The notes beneath the pieces were generated by a model, which did no database searches, was not told where the DNA came from, and saw nothing but the letters and a program-made list of their open reading frames with translations. This document shows positions 9,121 through 17,321 of a stretch of DNA of 64,000 nt, piece by piece (within the stretch, counting starts at the first letter, position 1; every line of letters begins with the position of its first letter). A program made the position numbers and the translations under genes. The stretch spans positions 124,001 through 188,000 of the forward strand of contig JAMLHC010000006.1 of assembly GCA_023957335.1 (NCBI GenBank), in the 5' to 3' direction. The stretch is from Bacteroidota bacterium (GTDB lineage Bacteria > Bacteroidota > Bacteroidia > NS11-12g > UBA955).

Positions 9121-10413
9121 TTATTGCTTAATAATTTTCTCTCTGACTATTCTGTCAGAGCCTAAACCATTGGATAACTCTATGTAGTAAACCCCGTTAG
9201 GCAAATTGCTTATGTCAATCTGTTGAGACTGTTTACTCTCTGCCACAATATGAGTGGTAGCTAAAGAAAAAATCTTTATATCAGGTTGCACCATTCCGGA
9301 AATATACACGATACCATTAGAGGGATTAGGATAAATAAGTACATTATCATCAGTACCTTCCCAATAGTATTTCTGAACCTCGCTGTATTGATACACACCA
9401 TCTATATCGACTTGTTTTAATCTATATAAATTATATCCGGGCAGAGGTTGATTATCAATAAACTCATAAGAATGATTCTCATAGCTGTTTCCTGCTCCCT
9501 GCTTACTTCCGATGGTATTCCAAAACACCCCGTCTGTACTTTTTTGTACTTCAAAGTGGCTGTTATTGTTTTCGGTAGCAGTCGTCCAATGATACACAAT
9601 GCTGTTTGTAGTAGCAGTAAGAGTTTGGTTAACATAGCTTACAGGCAAAGGAACCGTAAGTGCGCCAAAAGGCAGAAACCAAAAAGAATTCTGACGGTCT
9701 GTAGCGTTGGCGCTACGTGTACCAATGACACCTGCTCGTATATCAAAATTTTGAACATTGACAAAGTTCATCTGTACTTGTGCCGCATGAATAGAAGAAT
9801 CAATGTTATTGTAAACAGGATACCCGCTCACATTCACTATCCAATTGCCAATCATACCGGAAGTTACTGCTGAACCAGTTATCCCATAAGGCATTGAAGG
9901 AGCAGACACCCAAACTGTTTCTTTAAAAGCATTTGTTCCGGTAGAATTTCCGCTTCCATCTATATCAAGAATGGTCATAGCCAAACAAGGGAAAGTGTAG
10001 GGATTATTATTGAAACTATTTGCCCCTGCTCCGTTGCGGGATGCAAACTCTACTTTAAATTCAGCCCAAGCGGTGTCGGTAGCAGAGGTTGACCTGGGCA
10101 CTGTAACGACAGGTTGCCAAGATGCAGCATAGCCACCGGCAGTATAATCCCAATTGCCGACAGTAACTGCAGAACTAGAACGTGCAATCCAAGTTATTCT
10201 CATAAAAATATCAGGTGAAGTTCCTATTTGTATTGTTTTAGAACGAGTGCCACCGGTCGTTTGACCACCCGAAGAAGTCCAACTCGCATTAGAACCGGGA
10301 TTTGAAATTACAACATTGTGAACCGGATAAACACATTGTGCATTTACATCCGAAAAATTCAATAAAAATCCTATTGCAAAAAATTGAACTACATTTAAAA
10401 TTGATTTTTTCAT
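9121..10413 (-). CDS. T9SS-secreted protein with type A sorting domain
   Basis: 430 residues. The start at MKKSILNVVQFFAIGF (10413) begins a clean signal peptide ending at VNAQ; the frame extends to 10452 without adding signal features. The C-terminus carries the type A sorting signal of the type IX secretion system: YPNPSNGIVYISG, an internal NLPNGVYYIEL, and a basic end. The body has no recognised catalytic motif. A region of about 70 residues before the sorting domain (VYHWTTATENNNSHFEVQKS) resembles the Ig/FN3-like module often found in front of T9SS tails. Probably a cell-surface or secreted protein. Confidence 0.85.
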   Translation of the reverse strand: MKKSILNVVQFFAIGFLLNFSDVNAQCVYPVHNVVISNPGSNASWTSSGGQTTGGTRSKTIQIGTSPDIFMRITWIARSSSAVTVGNWDYTAGGYAASWQPVVTVPRSTSATDTAWAEFKVEFASRNGAGANSFNNNPYTFPCLAMTILDIDGSGNSTGTNAFKETVWVSAPSMPYGITGSAVTSGMIGNWIVNVSGYPVYNNIDSSIHAAQVQMNFVNVQNFDIRAGVIGTRSANATDRQNSFWFLPFGALTVPLPVSYVNQTLTATTNSIVYHWTTATENNNSHFEVQKSTDGVFWNTIGSKQGAGNSYENHSYEFIDNQPLPGYNLYRLKQVDIDGVYQYSEVQKYYWEGTDDNVLIYPNPSNGIVYISGMVQPDIKIFSLATTHIVAESKQSQQIDISNLPNGVYYIELSNGLGSDRIVREKIIKQ

Positions 10414-10710
10414 TTCCTTGCTGCTTTTTGTTTTAAAACACCTTGATAACATACGCTAACGCAATGCGCGAATTCTATACCATATAACACGTTCACACTT
10501 TTTTTCATCCATTAATTTCATCATTCATCTATAAGATTGCGAGAACCGTTCTTTATCCTAAATCTACTCATGCAAAAAATAAATAAGCGGCAAATCTAAA
10601 TAGTAACATTTTGTCTGTGCACAAAGGCAATATGGCAGAGATGGCAGTTTTGTCATATTCCCTTCACTTATCAGACAACAAAAACATAACTGTACTTTTA
10701 ACCTGATTCA

Positions 10711-10737
10711 GAGTGTGTATGTTGAACATTCATACTC
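10711..10737. promoter_or_regulatory. 27-base imperfect palindrome, possible operator
   Basis: Arms of 13 bases around one central G, with 11 of 13 positions paired (GAGTGTGTATGTT and AACATTCATACTC). It lies just downstream of a TACTTTTA box and about 340 bases before the dndC remnant. A binding site for a dimeric repressor is an inference from symmetry only. Confidence 0.35.
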
Positions 10738-10754
10738 AAAATCACTTTAAACAG

Positions 10755-10767
10755 TGCAAATTTTGCA
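10755..10767. promoter_or_regulatory. 13-base perfect palindrome TGCAAA-T-TTTGCA
   Basis: Six-base arms around a single T, 18 bases after the larger dyad and 25 bases before a small ATG-initiated frame. The right arm includes TTTTGC, which resembles a Bacteroidota -7 box, so the palindrome could overlap a promoter. Confidence 0.3.
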
Positions 10768-11073
10768 TAAAAATTATCTAAGACAACAACCATGCAAACC
10801 CTCGCCAATCAAGGCTTTCAACAAGAACTAAAAAACTTGCATTGAAAAGGTATTTGGTTTAGTATTGCAGGTGGTTGGGAATAGGGAGATAGTGTATTTG
10901 ACAACGGTGCAAACATTTAGCAGAATAACAAACAACAGACTAAATGCAAACTTACAAATAACACATTGGGTTTTATCCGACACGCAAGGCAACCTTTCAA
11001 AAAAAACAAATGAGCCACTTTTTAGAATACGCTTTTACAAAATGTTAAATAACAAGAAGAAAGTAAAACAACC

Positions 11074-11238
11074 ATGTCATTAAACATACAGCATTTAGAA
11101 AACGAAATTATAGACCAATACCTCTATGACGAGAACCCAACAAGACCTTGGATAATAGGTTTTAGTGGTGGAAAGGATTCCACAATGCTTTTACAAGTCG
11201 TTTGGAATGCACTTAAAAAAATTGAAAAGTTGTATTAA
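11074..11238 (+). pseudogene. dndC: dndC remnant: N-terminal 54 codons of a DNA phosphorothioation sulfurtransferase
   Basis: The frame begins MSLNIQHLENEIIDQYLYDE and contains WIIGFSGGKDSTMLLQVVW, where SGGKDST is the PP-loop that binds ATP in DndC/PAPS-reductase-like enzymes. The flanking W-x-x-G and LLQ-V-W are characteristic of DndC, which with DndA/IscS, DndD and DndE places sulfur in the DNA backbone. DndC is normally about 500 residues. Here it stops (TAA) after 54, just past the PP-loop, and 20 bases later the endonuclease gene begins. The rest of dndC and any dndD/dndE are absent, so this looks like a deletion scar. A short genuine protein is unlikely because the PP-loop fold is incomplete. 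Confidence 0.72.
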
Positions 11239-11258
11239 ATAAAATAAATCATACGAGC

Positions 11259-12221
11259 GTGCAAGAGCTTTTACAGAAATATCTCAAAGCATTTAAAAAG
11301 CTAAGAATAGACAGGGCTCATGGCGTTGCTCCACACAAACCTATTTTGCTGATATCTGTATTACAAACTTTTCAAAACGGAATTAACAACAACCAAAGAA
11401 TTTACATCACTCCTGAGTTAGTAGCTCTTTTCAAATCAAATTGGAATTCTCTTGGTACTTCAAATCACGATTGCAGATTTGCCTTACCCTTCTATCATTT
11501 AACCAGCGATAAATTTTGGAAACTTATTCCAAATCCAGGCTTTGAAAATATTCTTCTACTATCAGCATCCATGCGAAGTTTTTCCAACCTAAACGCTGCC
11601 GTTAATTGTGCAGTAATAGATGAAGAATTACATGAATTGATAATAGACAAGAAGTGTAATGAAATTTTGATGCAGTTTTTATTGGACGATTATTTCCCAA
11701 ATAGTAAAGGTAATTTCAATAATTCAACTGGTTGTCAACAAAATTTATTTGATGACATAGAAAATAAAATCCTCAAAGAACCACCAGAAGAGTATCGCCA
11801 GGAAATCAAAAAACTGCTTGAACAAAAAGACGATGAAGAAATTTTCCTTCGAGGAAGTTTATTCAAGAGAGAGATTCCAAAAATTTACAACAATACTTGT
11901 TGCGTATCAGGGATGAAGATTGATGCAACAATAAATGTATCCATGATTGATGCCTGCCACATTGTGCCCTTTAGTATAAGCTATGATGATTCTGTAACGA
12001 ATGGCATTGCTTTATGCCCGAATTTACACAGGGCTTTTGATAGAGGATTGATTGCCATTGATGACGATTATCGGGTGGTTGTTTCAAAAAGTTTTAAAGA
12101 AGTTGAAACGAGCTATAACATAAGGGCGTTTGAGGGGAAAGAAATACAGTTGCCGAGAATGAAAAGTTATTATCCTTTGAGCGAGAATTTTGGATGGCAT
12201 AGGAAAAATGTGTTTAAATGA
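11259..12221 (+). CDS. Sulfur-binding-domain/HNH endonuclease (putative phosphorothioate-dependent restriction enzyme)
   Basis: 320 residues, GTG start. The N-terminal half (about 1-150) has RAHGVAPHKPILLISVL (APHKP at 24-28) and, around residues 70-82, HDCRFALPFYHLTSDKFWKL. This layout matches the sulfur-binding domain (SBD) of ScoMcrA-type enzymes that recognise phosphorothioated DNA. The C-terminal half is an HNH_2-type nuclease: NNTCCVSGM near 211-218, DACHIVPF with H234, and ALCPNLHRAFDRGLI with N255 and H257. Expected role: cleavage of modified DNA. It sits 20 bases after a dndC remnant and overlaps the following helicase gene by 4 bases (ATGA), which supports a joint defence function. 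Whether it needs phosphorothioate is inferred, not shown. Confidence 0.75.
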   Translation: MQELLQKYLKAFKKLRIDRAHGVAPHKPILLISVLQTFQNGINNNQRIYITPELVALFKSNWNSLGTSNHDCRFALPFYHLTSDKFWKLIPNPGFENILLLSASMRSFSNLNAAVNCAVIDEELHELIIDKKCNEILMQFLLDDYFPNSKGNFNNSTGCQQNLFDDIENKILKEPPEEYRQEIKKLLEQKDDEEIFLRGSLFKREIPKIYNNTCCVSGMKIDATINVSMIDACHIVPFSISYDDSVTNGIALCPNLHRAFDRGLIAIDDDYRVVVSKSFKEVETSYNIRAFEGKEIQLPRMKSYYPLSENFGWHRKNVFK

Positions 12222-15200
12222 ACTCAATAGCATTCATTGATACGGAAGTTGAGCCAAAGAGCCGAAAGATTCTTGACATCGGAAGTGTCAAGGGTGATGG
12301 AAGTTCTTTTCATAAAACTTCGGTTGCTGAATTCATATTGTTTCTGAACGGAACACAATTCATTTGCGGACACAACATTTTCAACCACGACATAAAATAT
12401 ATCGGCAAAGCACTCAATGATGCGGGAGTAAATTCTGCAAACATCATTGACACTTTATTTCTCTCTCCCCTGATATTTCCGACAAAGCCATATCATGCTT
12501 TGTTGAAAGATGACAAACTTCAATCAGAGGATTCTAACAATCCTTTGAATGATTCTATTAAAGCAAGAGATTTGTTCAATGACGAAGTTGCCGCCTTCAG
12601 GCAAACAGACGAAACACTGAAACAGATTTTCTATTTGCTTTTGAAAGACAAAAAGGAGTTCCACTCCTTTTTCCGTTTCATTGCATACACGGGAGTAAGC
12701 ACAGAAATTGAACAACTGATTCGCCAAAAATTTAAAAATGAAATTTGCGAACAAGCTGACTTGAAGAAAATAATTTCCGAATACCCGATTGAACTTGCAT
12801 ACTGTTTATCGCTTGTAGATTCTTTCATTCAACACAAGAAAATACATTCCATCACACCGCCTTGGGTGCTGAAAAATTATCCTGAAGTTGAACGGATAAT
12901 GTTTCGCTTGCGAAACAAACCTTGTGTAAGCGGTTGCGTGTATTGCGACAACGCATTAAACATTCACAAGGGATTGAAACGACTTTTCGGTTTTGATTCA
13001 TTCAGAACCTACGGAGGTGAACCACTGCAAGAGAAAGCAGTCAAAGCAGCCGTTGACAACAAATCCATTCTTGCAGTTTTCCCGACAGGCGGAGGCAAGT
13101 CAATCACTTTTCAAGTTCCTTCATTGATGAGTGGAGAATGTTCAAAGGGTTTGACAGTTGTGATTTCTCCTTTGCAATCATTAATGAAAGACCAAGTTGA
13201 CAATCTTGAAAAAGTTGGAATCACAGATGCGGTTACAATAAATGGTTTGCTTGACCCGATTGAAAGAGCAAAATCTTTTGAACGAGTTGAGGATGGTTCT
13301 GCTTCTATTCTTTACATCTCGCCTGAATCACTTCGTTCACGGACAATTGAGAGATTGATTTTGGGAAGAAAGATTGTTCGCTTTGTTATTGACGAAGCAC
13401 ATTGCTTTTCTTCGTGGGGACAGGATTTCCGTGTTGACTATTTATACATAGGTGATTTCATCAAGCAAATTCAGGAAAAGAAAAATCTTGAAGACGGAAT
13501 TCCAGTTTCATGTTTCACAGCAACAGCTAAGCAAAAGGTTATTGAAGATATTCGGGACTACTTCAAAGAAAAACTTTCGCTTGACCTTGAACTGTTCACT
13601 TCAAAAGCATCAAGAACAAATCTTCAATACAAAGTTTTTGAAAAAGGAGACGAGGAAACAAAGTATCAGCAAGCAAGAGACCTGATTGTGGAAAAAAATT
13701 GCCCGACTATCATTTATGTTTCAAGAACACGAAAAGCCGATTTATTGGCAGAAAGGTTGTCCAAAGACGGTTTTAGTGCAAGACCTTATCACGGCAAAAT
13801 GGATAAGCAGGAAAAATCTGAAAACCAAGATTTGTTTATCAATGGAGATACACAAATAATGGTGGCGACTTCTGCTTTCGGAATGGGAGTTGACAAGAAA
13901 GATGTTGGAATGGTGATTCACTATGAAATTTCCGATTCACTTGAAAACTATATTCAGGAAGCAGGAAGAGCTGGACGAGATGAAAATATAACAGCTGATT
14001 GCTTTGTGTTGTTTAACGAAGAAGATTTAAGCAAACACTTTATTCTTCTAAATCAAACTAAACTTTCAATTAAAGAAATTCAACAAATTTGGAAAGCAAT
14101 AAAAGAGATTACAAAGTTCCGTTCAACAGTTTCAAACTCCGCTTTGGAGATTGCACGGAAAGCAGGTTGGGATGATAATGTTGTAGAGATTGAAACAAGA
14201 GTAACGACAGCGATTGCCGCTTTAGAAGATGCTGGTTATTTGAAGCGAGGACAAAACATGCCGAGAGTTTTCGCTAATAGTATTCTTTCAAAGAATGCAC
14301 AAGAAGCCATTGACAAAATTAATGGTTCGGAACGATTTGAGGAAAAGCAAAAAGAAAAAGGAATCCGAATTATCAAGAAACTTTTTTCAAGTAAGAGCAG
14401 AAAGCAAGCAAACGATGAAGCAGCCGAATCAAGAATTGATTACATCAGCGACCATTTGGGAATTGTAAAAGAAGAAGTGATAAACATTGTGAATCTTCTT
14501 CGTGAGGAAAAGATTTTGGCTGATGCAAAGGACTTGACCGCTTTTATTAAGAAAGGAGAAAATAGAAACCGTTCTCTCAACATAGTTGAAACATTCAGTA
14601 AGATTGAAAATTTCTTGCTTCCAGTTTTTAAGGAACAGGAAAAGACATTTCACATCAAGGAACTTAACGAAGAAGCAGAGGCAAACGGTTGTGAAGATGT
14701 AAATACAAACAAGCTGAAAACCATTATCAACTTTTGGGCAATCAAGAATTGGATTAAGAGACAGAATCTTGAATACTCAAAAAATAATGTTGTGGTTCTT
14801 TGCCTGCATCCAAAAGAAACGCTGAGAGAAAAATTGGATAAGCGGCATGAGTTGGCAAAGTTCATAGTTGAACATCTCTATGAGAAAAGTAAACTGAATG
14901 TTTCAGAAGATGATAAAGACAAAGAGGAAGTATTGGTTGAGTTTTCAGTTCACGAATTGAAAGAGGAGTTTGAAAGGAAGCCGAAGTTGTTTGAAATAAA
15001 AATTACTCTTGACGATGTAGAAGACACTCTTTTCTACTTGTCAAGGATTGATGCCATAAAAATTGAAGGAGGATTTCTTGTTGTCTATAACAAACTGACC
15101 ATTGAAAGAGTTGAGCAAGATAATTACAAAAAATACACAAAAGAAGATTATCGGAAGCTAAATCAGTTTTACGAAAACAAGGTTCAGCAAATTCATATTG

Positions 15201-17041
15201 TTGGCGAATATGCCAAGAAAATGATTGATAACTACAAGGACGCATTACAATTTGTGGAGGATTATTTTCAATTAAACTACTGTTCGTTTCTTAAAAAGTA
15301 TTTCCCTGGAAGCAAAGTTGATACTCTAAAACTCAAAATGACTCCGGGAAAATTCAAACAACTTTTTGGAGATCTTTCTCCAACGCAGTTGAAAATTATA
15401 AACGACAATGAATCTAAAAACATTGTCGTAGCAGCTGGACCTGGAAGCGGTAAAACAAGAGTGTTGGTTCATAAATTGGCTTCATTGCTTTTGATGGAAG
15501 ATGTAAAACATGAGCAGTTGCTCATGGTAACTTTCTCAAGGGCAGCAGCAACTGAATTTAAGAAGCGTTTGTTAAAGTTAATTGGCAATGTAGCAAACTA
15601 CATTGAGATAAAAACCTTTCACTCCTACTGCTTTGATTTGTTAGGTAAGGTTGGAAGTTTGGAAAAGTCCAATGTGATTTTGAAAAAGACGATTGAAAAA
15701 ATTAAAAACAAGGAAGTTGAAGCAAACCGAATTACCAAAACTGTTTTAGTGATTGATGAAGCACAAGACATGGATGAAGATGAATACAATCTGATAAACG
15801 CCTTGATGGAACAGAACGAAGAAATGAGAGTGATTGCAGTTGGTGATGATGACCAGAACATTTATGAATTCAGAGGAGCAAGTGCAAAATATCTTGAACA
15901 TTTTATTCACGTGAGCAAAGCAGTCAAGCATGAATTGGTTGAGAACTACAGAAGCAAAAACAATCTTGTTGAATTCACGAATCAGTTTGTAAAAAGAATT
16001 CGTCATCGCTTAAAAGACACTCCAATCATTCCGAAGCAAGCCGACAACGGAAAAATAAAATTGGTTCGTTATCAAAGCGGCAATCTCATTACTCCGATTG
16101 TGCATGACATACTCACAACTGGACTTACAGGAACTACATGTGTGCTAACAAAGACGAATGAAGAAGCACTCCAAATCACTGGGCTCCTTTTAAAACATGA
16201 CATGCAAGCGAAGTTGATTCAAACCAATGATGGTTTCAGTTTGTATAATCTTTCCGAAGTCAGATTCTTTTTAAGCCAATTGAATTTGGCTGACGATGTT
16301 TTCATAATCAGCGATGATGTTTGGGCAAATGCGAAGCGGGAATTGATAGACAAGTTTAGGAACAGCACCAAATTGGAAGTATGCAACAACATCATCAAAG
16401 ATTTTGAAGCGACCAACCCAAAGAAGAAATACAAATCTGATTTGGAAGTTTTCATTCGTGAATCCAAGTTGGAAGATTTCTTCAATGAGAACGGAGAAAC
16501 AATTTTTGTTTCAACCATTCACAAAGCAAAAGGGAAAGAGTTTGACAATGTTTTCCTGATGCTAGAAAACTTCAATCCTGCAACTGACGAAGCTAAACGG
16601 CTCTTGTATGTTGCAATGACAAGAGCAAAGCAGAATTTGACCGTTCACATTAATTCAAATTTCCTTGATAATCTCTCGGTAGAAAATATAGAGCGAATTG
16701 ACGATAGAGAAATTTATTTACCGCCAAACGAAATAGCAATGCACTTGACATATACAGATGTTTGGCTTGATTACTTCATTAACAAACAACATTTAATTTC
16801 TCAACTAACAAGTGGAGATACTTTGACTTTGAACGGAGAAGAATGTTTGAATTTAAAAGGACAATCAGTTTTGAAATTCTCACAGAAGTTTGTAAGCCAA
16901 ATTGAAAGTAAGAAAGCGGAAAACTATTGCTTGAAGAGTGCAAAAGTAAATTTCATTGTTTACTGGAAAAAAGAAGACACCGAACAGGAAGTAAAAATAA
17001 TTTTACCAGAGCTTTATTTTGAAAGAAAAAGCAAGGAATGA
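12218..17041 (+). CDS. DEDDh exonuclease-RecQ-UvrD three-part helicase/nuclease
   Basis: 1607 residues, unusually long. (1) Residues 1-190: DnaQ-like 3'-5' exonuclease with IAFIDTEVEP (D8, E10), GHNIFNHD (H57, D58) and a distal H...NDSIKARDL pair. (2) About 225-245: cysteine cluster PCVSGCVYCDNAL. (3) About 260-600: RecQ helicase with FPTGGGKSITF (about 283-289), VIDEAHCFSSWGQDFR (about 390) and QEAGRAGRDE (motif VI). (4) About 1050-1520: UvrD/PcrA-like helicase with AAGPGSGKTRVL (about 1071), VIDEAQDMDEDE (about 1176), VENYRSKNNL, STIHKAKGKEFD and YVAMTRAKQNL. The usual four-Cys zinc site after the RecQ core is not visible. It overlaps the HNH gene by ATGA, so the two are translated together. 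Likely a DNA-processing partner in a restriction or repair system. Confidence 0.88.
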   Translation: MNSIAFIDTEVEPKSRKILDIGSVKGDGSSFHKTSVAEFILFLNGTQFICGHNIFNHDIKYIGKALNDAGVNSANIIDTLFLSPLIFPTKPYHALLKDDKLQSEDSNNPLNDSIKARDLFNDEVAAFRQTDETLKQIFYLLLKDKKEFHSFFRFIAYTGVSTEIEQLIRQKFKNEICEQADLKKIISEYPIELAYCLSLVDSFIQHKKIHSITPPWVLKNYPEVERIMFRLRNKPCVSGCVYCDNALNIHKGLKRLFGFDSFRTYGGEPLQEKAVKAAVDNKSILAVFPTGGGKSITFQVPSLMSGECSKGLTVVISPLQSLMKDQVDNLEKVGITDAVTINGLLDPIERAKSFERVEDGSASILYISPESLRSRTIERLILGRKIVRFVIDEAHCFSSWGQDFRVDYLYIGDFIKQIQEKKNLEDGIPVSCFTATAKQKVIEDIRDYFKEKLSLDLELFTSKASRTNLQYKVFEKGDEETKYQQARDLIVEKNCPTIIYVSRTRKADLLAERLSKDGFSARPYHGKMDKQEKSENQDLFINGDTQIMVATSAFGMGVDKKDVGMVIHYEISDSLENYIQEAGRAGRDENITADCFVLFNEEDLSKHFILLNQTKLSIKEIQQIWKAIKEITKFRSTVSNSALEIARKAGWDDNVVEIETRVTTAIAALEDAGYLKRGQNMPRVFANSILSKNAQEAIDKINGSERFEEKQKEKGIRIIKKLFSSKSRKQANDEAAESRIDYISDHLGIVKEEVINIVNLLREEKILADAKDLTAFIKKGENRNRSLNIVETFSKIENFLLPVFKEQEKTFHIKELNEEAEANGCEDVNTNKLKTIINFWAIKNWIKRQNLEYSKNNVVVLCLHPKETLREKLDKRHELAKFIVEHLYEKSKLNVSEDDKDKEEVLVEFSVHELKEEFERKPKLFEIKITLDDVEDTLFYLSRIDAIKIEGGFLVVYNKLTIERVEQDNYKKYTKEDYRKLNQFYENKVQQIHIVGEYAKKMIDNYKDALQFVEDYFQLNYCSFLKKYFPGSKVDTLKLKMTPGKFKQLFGDLSPTQLKIINDNESKNIVVAAGPGSGKTRVLVHKLASLLLMEDVKHEQLLMVTFSRAAATEFKKRLLKLIGNVANYIEIKTFHSYCFDLLGKVGSLEKSNVILKKTIEKIKNKEVEANRITKTVLVIDEAQDMDEDEYNLINALMEQNEEMRVIAVGDDDQNIYEFRGASAKYLEHFIHVSKAVKHELVENYRSKNNLVEFTNQFVKRIRHRLKDTPIIPKQADNGKIKLVRYQSGNLITPIVHDILTTGLTGTTCVLTKTNEEALQITGLLLKHDMQAKLIQTNDGFSLYNLSEVRFFLSQLNLADDVFIISDDVWANAKRELIDKFRNSTKLEVCNNIIKDFEATNPKKKYKSDLEVFIRESKLEDFFNENGETIFVSTIHKAKGKEFDNVFLMLENFNPATDEAKRLLYVAMTRAKQNLTVHINSNFLDNLSVENIERIDDREIYLPPNEIAMHLTYTDVWLDYFINKQHLISQLTSGDTLTLNGEECLNLKGQSVLKFSQKFVSQIESKKAENYCLKSAKVNFIVYWKKEDTEQEVKIILPELYFERKSKE

Positions 17042-17321
17042 AAAGCCCATTCACAATCAATAAAACACGCTTGCAAGCCACTCAAAGCCAACGCCTGAAC
17101 CAAAGCTCGCAAGAGTGTATTTTTTGTCCAAGCCGAGCAAGGTAGTAGAATAGTGACAGCCGTCAACAAACGGTTTGGACGCAAGCAGGGTATTCCCAAA
17201 ATCTGCATAATCCTAAACTCAAAGTCGGTATTTCAATTAAGGTACAATAGGTATAAATACCTACTTCAGCATATTGGGAGATATCTTAAATTTGTTTCGA
17301 ATTAAAAGAAATAGAAAAAAG
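17042..17321. other. Non-coding boundary segment downstream of the defence pair
   Basis: 280 bases with no supported gene. About 17080-17200 looks more GC-rich than its surroundings and contains the dyad CAAAC-G-GTTTG at 17167-17177. A 64-codon minus-strand frame here has no protein-like signature. It may be the edge of the acquired region, but no direct repeats or tRNA end were found. Confidence 0.4.

What the first reader, a model, noticed from the sequence alone, without database searches (positions are those of the whole stretch)
11259..17041. Candidate defence pair: SBD-HNH endonuclease coupled to a DEDDh-RecQ-UvrD fusion
Seen: two genes overlapping by ATGA, an APHKP-type SBD plus HNH nuclease and a 1607-residue chain with exonuclease, RecQ and UvrD motifs. 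Inference: the nuclease recognises and nicks or cuts DNA (perhaps phosphorothioated), and the large protein unwinds and degrades it from the break in both polarities, since RecQ and UvrD are both 3'-5' but could load on opposite strands. This could be a self-contained restriction-degradation module whose exact combination I do not recall as a described system.
Basis: partly seen in the sequence, partly recalled or inferred. Interest (0 to 1): 0.85.

Follow-up and report, generated by a model that had tools for sequence, protein, structure and literature searches.

The report
Sulfur-sensing nuclease coupled to helicase-exonuclease
A bacterial gene pair joins an enzyme predicted to cut sulfur-marked foreign DNA to a very large DNA-unwinding and chewing protein; the pairing arose at least three separate times, and the cutter sits right behind the broken-off start of a gene that makes the same sulfur mark, as if the mark's maker had been replaced by its destroyer.

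Summary
11259-12221 encodes a full-length SBD-HNH protein: NCBIfam PT-DNA restriction family over residues 11-320, SBD-Hga as best sequence and fold match, sulfur-pocket residues H26/K27/P77 conserved. 12218-17041 encodes an intact 1607-aa protein with DEDD exonuclease, four invariant Cys, RecQ and UvrD. They overlap by ATGA.

The pair is real but uncommon. Of 70 large-protein loci, 3 others carry SBD-HNH directly upstream with the same 4-base overlap (about 0.0007 expected by chance). The paired large proteins sit on three separate branches (AU p=2e-43), so the junction formed at least three times. Usually the large gene is alone, or near McrBC, AbiEii, HNH or Schlafen-type genes. The same SBD-HNH clade also precedes Hachiman HamAB and an Mks/Wadjet-like operon: an exchangeable front module, not half of one fixed system.

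Such stubs precede SBD-HNH in five further loci, and the desulfurase that ends intact dnd loci lies beside several SBD-HNH genes: PT-cutting genes repeatedly occupy former PT-making (dnd) loci.

Best reading: a type IV PT-dependent restriction enzyme co-expressed with a separate, probably defensive helicase-exonuclease. Cut-then-degrade cooperation is untested.

The parts
11074..11238 (+). Truncated dndC start ('stub'), 54 codons including the SGGKDST loop, ending 20 bases before the SBD-HNH start codon
   Evidence: TIGR03183 DndC E=7.5e-11 and PRK06850 E=1.8e-12; TIGR03183 E=1e-9 in a whole-genome search; 87-88% identical to the start of an intact 442-aa DndC
11259..12221 (+). SBD-HNH predicted phosphorothioate-dependent restriction endonuclease, 320 aa, GTG start
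11259..11693 (+). Sulfur-binding domain (aa 1-145); pocket H26, K27, P77 = ScoMcrA H116, R117 (Lys in most homologues), P165
   Evidence: 8h0l E=5e-13 and TM 0.83; pocket residues from PMC6224610; conservation
11841..12218 (+). HNH_2 nuclease domain and C-terminus (aa 195-320); H234, N248, H257 invariant
   Evidence: PF13391 E=7.9e-14; conservation
12218..12221 (+). ATGA overlap (stop of SBD-HNH, start of large gene)
   Evidence: same overlap in L102, L173, L176
12218..17041 (+). Large protein, 1607 aa: DEDD exonuclease - four-Cys region - RecQ - middle region - UvrD - C-terminal domain
12218..12592 (+). DEDD 3'-5' exonuclease-like domain (aa 1-125): D8, E10, D58, D112; N107 in place of the classical His; H93 invariant
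   Evidence: AlphaFold2 pLDDT 84; best folds DinG exonuclease, RNase AS, oligoribonuclease; conservation
12746..12946 (+). Four invariant cysteines C177, C236, C240, C243: candidate Zn or Fe-S site between exonuclease and RecQ
12959..14137 (+). RecQ-type SF2 helicase core (aa 248-640), Walker lysine K294, DEAH box 392-395
   Evidence: TIGR00614 278 bits, above its cut-off; PDB RecQ/BLM E=3e-51
15356..16687 (+). UvrD-type SF1A helicase (aa 1047-1490), Walker lysine K1079, DEAQ box 1180-1183
   Evidence: PF00580 E=1.8e-33, PF13361 E=2e-24

Best explanation
The locus is a two-gene operon at a former dnd (phosphorothioation) site. Gene 1 is a type IV restriction endonuclease of the SBD-HNH kind that binds Rp-phosphorothioated foreign DNA and cuts beside it. 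Gene 2 is a separate, usually solitary, DEDD exonuclease-RecQ-UvrD machine, most likely a defence protein, that unwinds DNA 3'-5' and digests 3' ends. In this and three other genomes the two are translationally coupled, so cutting and degrading machinery are made together; degradation starting from the HNH cut is the likely benefit. Shown by sequence: domains, intact active-site residues, recurrent 4-base coupling with at least three independent joinings, a dndC stub in front, no dnd system in the host. Inferred: PT-dependence, DNA degradation, cooperation, defence role.
For: SBD fold and pocket; intact HNH, DEDD and both Walker motifs; same ATGA junction in four genomes against 0.0007 expected; three separate joinings (helicase tree AU p=2e-43, SBD tree AU p=6e-4). 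No DndC or DndD in the host beyond the stub and no DndC in the genomes of L102, L173, L176. Patchy distribution (15 of 395 Bacteroidota genomes) and copies on plasmids. The large gene's other close partners are McrBC, AbiEii, HNH_2, Schlafen-g3 helicase, MTase-HIT, and some copies lie beside HsdM/HsdS- and DUF262-like genes (read by eye). The same SBD-HNH clade fronts Hachiman and Mks/Wadjet-like operons.
Against: 67 of 70 large-protein loci have no SBD-HNH upstream, so the large protein does not need it. The exonuclease lacks the classical motif-III histidine (N107), so its activity is uncertain. Several copies sit by housekeeping or plasmid partition genes, which also fits DNA repair or plasmid maintenance. 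No phage or PT assay exists. Sequence specificity of the SBD is unknown.
Confidence: 0.55

Rival explanations
1. Two independent defence genes that merely share a transcript. SBD-HNH is a portable type IV restriction gene whose 3' end (Lys-stop, AAATGA) readily couples to whatever defence operon lies behind it; the large protein acts alone.
For: SBD-HNH of one clade precedes four kinds of downstream operon: large helicase, Hachiman HamAB, Mks/Wadjet-like, and a 67-aa gene. Most large-protein genes are solitary.
Against: The same junction with the same large-protein family formed at least three times independently, which favours some specific benefit.
Confidence: 0.35
2. The DEDD-RecQ-UvrD protein is a general DNA repair or replication-fork protein (WRN- or DinG-like), not a defence protein; adjacency to SBD-HNH helps repair breaks the nuclease makes in self DNA.
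For: Domain parallels: WRN fuses a DEDD exonuclease to RecQ, DinG a DEDD exonuclease to a helicase. Several copies sit beside ordinary genes or ParA/ParB on plasmids.
Against: Patchy, partly plasmid-borne distribution and frequent close partners of the restriction/toxin kind.
Confidence: 0.2
3. One reading: an obligate two-component system in which the large protein loads on the HNH cut and degrades both strands with its two 3'-5' motors.
For: Tight coupling in four genomes; motor and nuclease motifs intact.
Against: Neither gene is usually found with the other. No evidence for complex formation.
Confidence: 0.15

Closest known systems
SBD-HNH PT-dependent restriction endonucleases (EcoWI, Ksp11411I, Bsp305I; ScoMcrA and SprMcrA with SRA)
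   Same: Same two domains, sulfur-pocket residues conserved, host without dnd; SBD-HNH genes are rarely near dnd clusters (PMC7461809)
   Different: Coupled by ATGA to a large helicase-exonuclease, and preceded by a dndC stub; neither was mentioned in the passages read of PMC7461809 or PMC6224610
Hachiman (HamA nuclease + HamB helicase)
   Same: Nuclease plus helicase as neighbouring genes; a close SBD-HNH relative sits in front of a true HamAB pair in L222
   Different: Large protein here is RecQ-UvrD with DEDD exonuclease, not HamB; no HamA
Gabija GajB / UvrD-type defence helicases and DpdF
   Same: PADLOC GajB and DpdF models match the UvrD and RecQ parts
   Different: Matches cover single motor domains only; none of the models listed covers the whole protein
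WRN (DEDD exonuclease + RecQ) and DinG (DEDD exonuclease + helicase)
   Same: Exonuclease fused to a helicase; fold of the exonuclease closest to DinG
   Different: Second motor (UvrD) and four-Cys region added; classical catalytic His replaced by Asn
dnd loci (DndCDE with cysteine desulfurase)
   Same: Window has the dndC start; related SBD-HNH loci keep the desulfurase at the same side
   Different: dndDE and most of dndC are gone; a PT-cutting gene stands in their place

Membership tests
SBD-HNH PT-dependent (type IV) restriction endonuclease | N-terminal sulfur-binding domain with His, Arg/Lys and Pro of the sulfur pocket | tested here: met
   H26, K27, P77; fold match to SBD-Hga, SprMcrA, ScoMcrA
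SBD-HNH PT-dependent (type IV) restriction endonuclease | C-terminal HNH nuclease with intact catalytic residues | tested here: met
   HNH_2 E=8e-14; H234, N248, H257 invariant
SBD-HNH PT-dependent (type IV) restriction endonuclease | Reaches the curated NCBIfam cut-off of NF045808 (180 bits; not a biological criterion) | tested here: not met
   126 bits over residues 11-320; an 'exception'-type model of a narrow named family, so that narrow name is not claimed
SBD-HNH PT-dependent (type IV) restriction endonuclease | Host carries no PT-modification system of its own | tested here: met
   only the stub and TilS found with DndC/PAPS-reductase models, no DndD
SBD-HNH PT-dependent (type IV) restriction endonuclease | Cuts PT-DNA, not unmodified DNA | not testable with these tools
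   needs purified enzyme
DEDDh exonuclease | Four DEDD acids | tested here: met
   D8, E10, D58, D112, at least 99% in 95 homologues
DEDDh exonuclease | Motif-III histidine five residues before the last Asp | tested here: not met
   N107 in 92 of 95, S in 3; H93 invariant elsewhere
RecQ helicase | SF2 RecQ core with all motor motifs | tested here: met
   TIGR00614 278 bits, cut-off 220; K294, D392, H395
UvrD/Rep SF1A helicase | UvrD N and C motor domains with Walker A/B | tested here: met
   PF00580 117 bits, PF13361 87 bits; D1180, Q1183
Fixed two-gene defence system | The two genes are usually found together | tested here: not met
   3 of 70 large-protein loci; SBD-HNH mostly without it
Fixed two-gene defence system | Protects against phage or foreign DNA | not testable with these tools
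   needs phage and plasmid assays

The most novel reading that the evidence does not exclude
SBD-HNH is a plug-in 'front end' that, through its ATGA end, is repeatedly joined to independent DNA-destroying machines (DEDD-RecQ-UvrD, Hachiman, Mks/Wadjet-like), giving them a PT-directed entry point. It enters genomes by converting dnd loci: the PT-writing genes between the dndC start and the cysteine desulfurase are swapped for a PT-cutting gene, so the two never coexist active. The mirror case (an SBD stub before intact dndC-dndD, L230) would be conversion in the other direction.
Probability: 0.3. Interest if true: 0.8.

Novelty: new variant of a known kind. Interest (0 to 1): 0.6.

Why it matters
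It points to a widespread, apparently undescribed helicase-exonuclease family (Bacteroidota, with plasmid copies elsewhere) as a likely defence effector. It also gives direct genomic traces of a conflict so far mostly argued from absence: PT-writing and PT-cutting systems replacing each other at the same locus. Both are testable in laboratory strains with PT and non-PT plasmids.

Tried and rejected
Chance juxtaposition: rejected after three more genomes with the same overlap. One ancestral pairing carried along: rejected for the large protein (AU p=2e-43) and for the SBD (AU p=6e-4). Pair linked to present dnd systems: rejected. Pair carried by phages: no match of the large protein in phage records or viral contigs; SBD-HNH gave one weak viral hit. 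DndC stub as a conserved nucleic-acid element: not supported; stubs end at different codons and are about as close to an intact dndC as to each other, with mostly synonymous differences, so they look like recent relics. Profile search of the N-terminal domain against PDB sequences found nothing useful; the fold search did. The AlphaFold2 model of SBD-HNH is poor in the HNH half (pLDDT below 50 at 205-258), so only the SBD half is interpreted. Empty-site analysis incomplete: synteny with a congener stops at 10341 and only DedA is found elsewhere.

Full report
OBSERVATION. Both genes are present as described. The first, 11259-12221, starts with GTG and ends ...AAATGA; the second starts at the ATG inside that end (12218). 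The first is SBD-HNH: HNH_2 E=8e-14; NF045808 over residues 11-320 at 126 bits, below the 180-bit cut-off; best PDB sequence SBD-Hga 8h0l. In a predicted structure (reliable only in the SBD half) the top fold matches are SBD-Hga, SprMcrA and ScoMcrA. The sulfur-pocket residues of ScoMcrA, H116, R117 (Lys in most homologues) and P165 (PMC6224610), correspond to H26, K27 and P77, all conserved.

The large protein has RecQ (about 248-640) and UvrD (about 1047-1490) cores with all motor residues. Pfam sees no exonuclease at its N-terminus, but four acids in DEDD positions are at least 99% conserved among 95 homologues and the predicted fold (pLDDT 84) is closest to the exonuclease of DinG. The classical DEDDh histidine position is Asn107 in 92 of 95; an invariant H93 lies nearby. 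Four further invariant cysteines (177, 236, 240, 243) suggest a Zn or Fe-S site.

HOW COMMON IS THE PAIR. The large protein occurs in 15 of 395 Bacteroidota genomes, with 238 relatives in a scan of 84,980 species, no phage copies and some plasmid copies. In the 14 genomes first examined no SBD-HNH stands directly upstream; L029 has only an HNH-half relative, on the opposite strand downstream. Among the 80 best loci of the larger scan, L102, L173 (Roseivirga spongicola) and L176 carry SBD-HNH directly upstream with exactly the same 4-base overlap; L170 has one nearby on the other strand. With 26 of 395 class genomes holding such an SBD-HNH, about 0.0007 such neighbours would be expected in 70 loci with upstream DNA; three were seen (a rough estimate that ignores clustering in defence islands; L102 has only 340 bases beyond its SBD-HNH). 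The paired large proteins fall on three separate, well supported branches and a single clade is rejected (AU p=2e-43); the paired SBD-HNH proteins are not a clade either (AU p=6e-4) but lie in one 7-member group. So the junction was most likely made at least three times.

OTHER PARTNERS. Most large-protein genes are solitary. Close upstream or downstream partners elsewhere include McrBC (L142, L178), AbiEii (L120, L174), an HNH_2 protein (L134), an MTase-HIT fusion (L124, and L170 with a 4-base overlap), a Schlafen-g3 helicase (L177), DUF4268 and an N6-methylase fragment. Conversely, close SBD-HNH relatives front Hachiman HamAB (L222) and an MksE/MukB-like operon related to Wadjet (L223, 4-base overlap). 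PADLOC JetC support for L223 is weak (22 bits), so 'Wadjet-like' is used with care.

A RELIC OF A PT-WRITING LOCUS. Just upstream, 11074-11238 encodes the first 50 or so residues of DndC. The genome has no other DndC and no DndD. The same kind of stub, cut at different codons, lies directly before SBD-HNH in L219, L220, L223, L229 (its locus is split over the ends of two contigs, L229 and L261) and, weakly, L222. Every DndC stub shorter than 70 codons found in 385 class genomes has SBD-HNH behind it. Intact dnd loci L263, L264, L267 and L269 end with a convergent IscS/DndA-like desulfurase; the same gene lies on the matching side of SBD-HNH in L220, L222, L223, L065 and L234 and as fragments in L219 and L229. 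L230 is the mirror image: an SBD start of about 60 codons before intact dndC-dndD. The window itself keeps the stub but not the desulfurase. I read this as PT-cutting genes taking over PT-writing loci; whether by direct exchange or by stepwise loss is open. A published parallel is the conflict between a methylation system and a methylation-dependent HNH endonuclease, solved there by silencing (PMC8989522). PMC7461809 found dnd genes next to fewer than 3.6% of such endonucleases and suggested mutated dnd clusters as one reason. One genome, G080, holds both an intact dndC and a distant (41%) SBD-HNH on different contigs, so coexistence is possible.

MECHANISM. Most likely, SBD-HNH cuts incoming PT-DNA, and the co-translated large protein unwinds and trims the broken DNA. 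Cooperation, PT-dependence and a defence role are inference.

VERDICT. Observation confirmed; interpretation partly supported. New variant of a known kind: type IV PT-dependent restriction coupled to a large uncharacterised helicase-exonuclease, at a converted dnd locus.

Noticed in passing
window 11074-11238: DndC N-terminal stub in front of SBD-HNH; the same in L219, L220, L222 (weak), L223, L229
   Followed up: yes
L230 8662-8850 and 8983 onward: Mirror case: SBD N-terminal stub of about 60 codons directly before an intact dndC-dndD operon
   Followed up: partly
L222 6351-10801: SBD-HNH directly in front of a Hachiman HamA-HamB pair, between a weak dndC stub and a cysteine desulfurase
   Followed up: partly
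L223 6483-12911: SBD-HNH overlapping by 4 bases the first gene of an MksE/MukB-like (Wadjet-like) operon; that first gene (398 aa) has no Pfam, NCBIfam or PADLOC hit
   Followed up: partly
window 12746-12946: Four invariant cysteines between the exonuclease and RecQ parts: possible Zn or Fe-S site
   Followed up: no
L124 9144-9998; L170 9129-10004: A methyltransferase-HIT fusion directly upstream of the large gene (gap 2, and overlap 4 bases): another recurrent partner
   Followed up: no
window 10341-17274: Synteny with a same-genus genome ends at 10341, so the pair lies at an accessory site; right border not resolved
   Followed up: partly
L232 (genome of L170): DndC-like PAPS-reductase protein below the DndC cut-off, at a contig end, in a genome that also has SBD-HNH
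   Followed up: no
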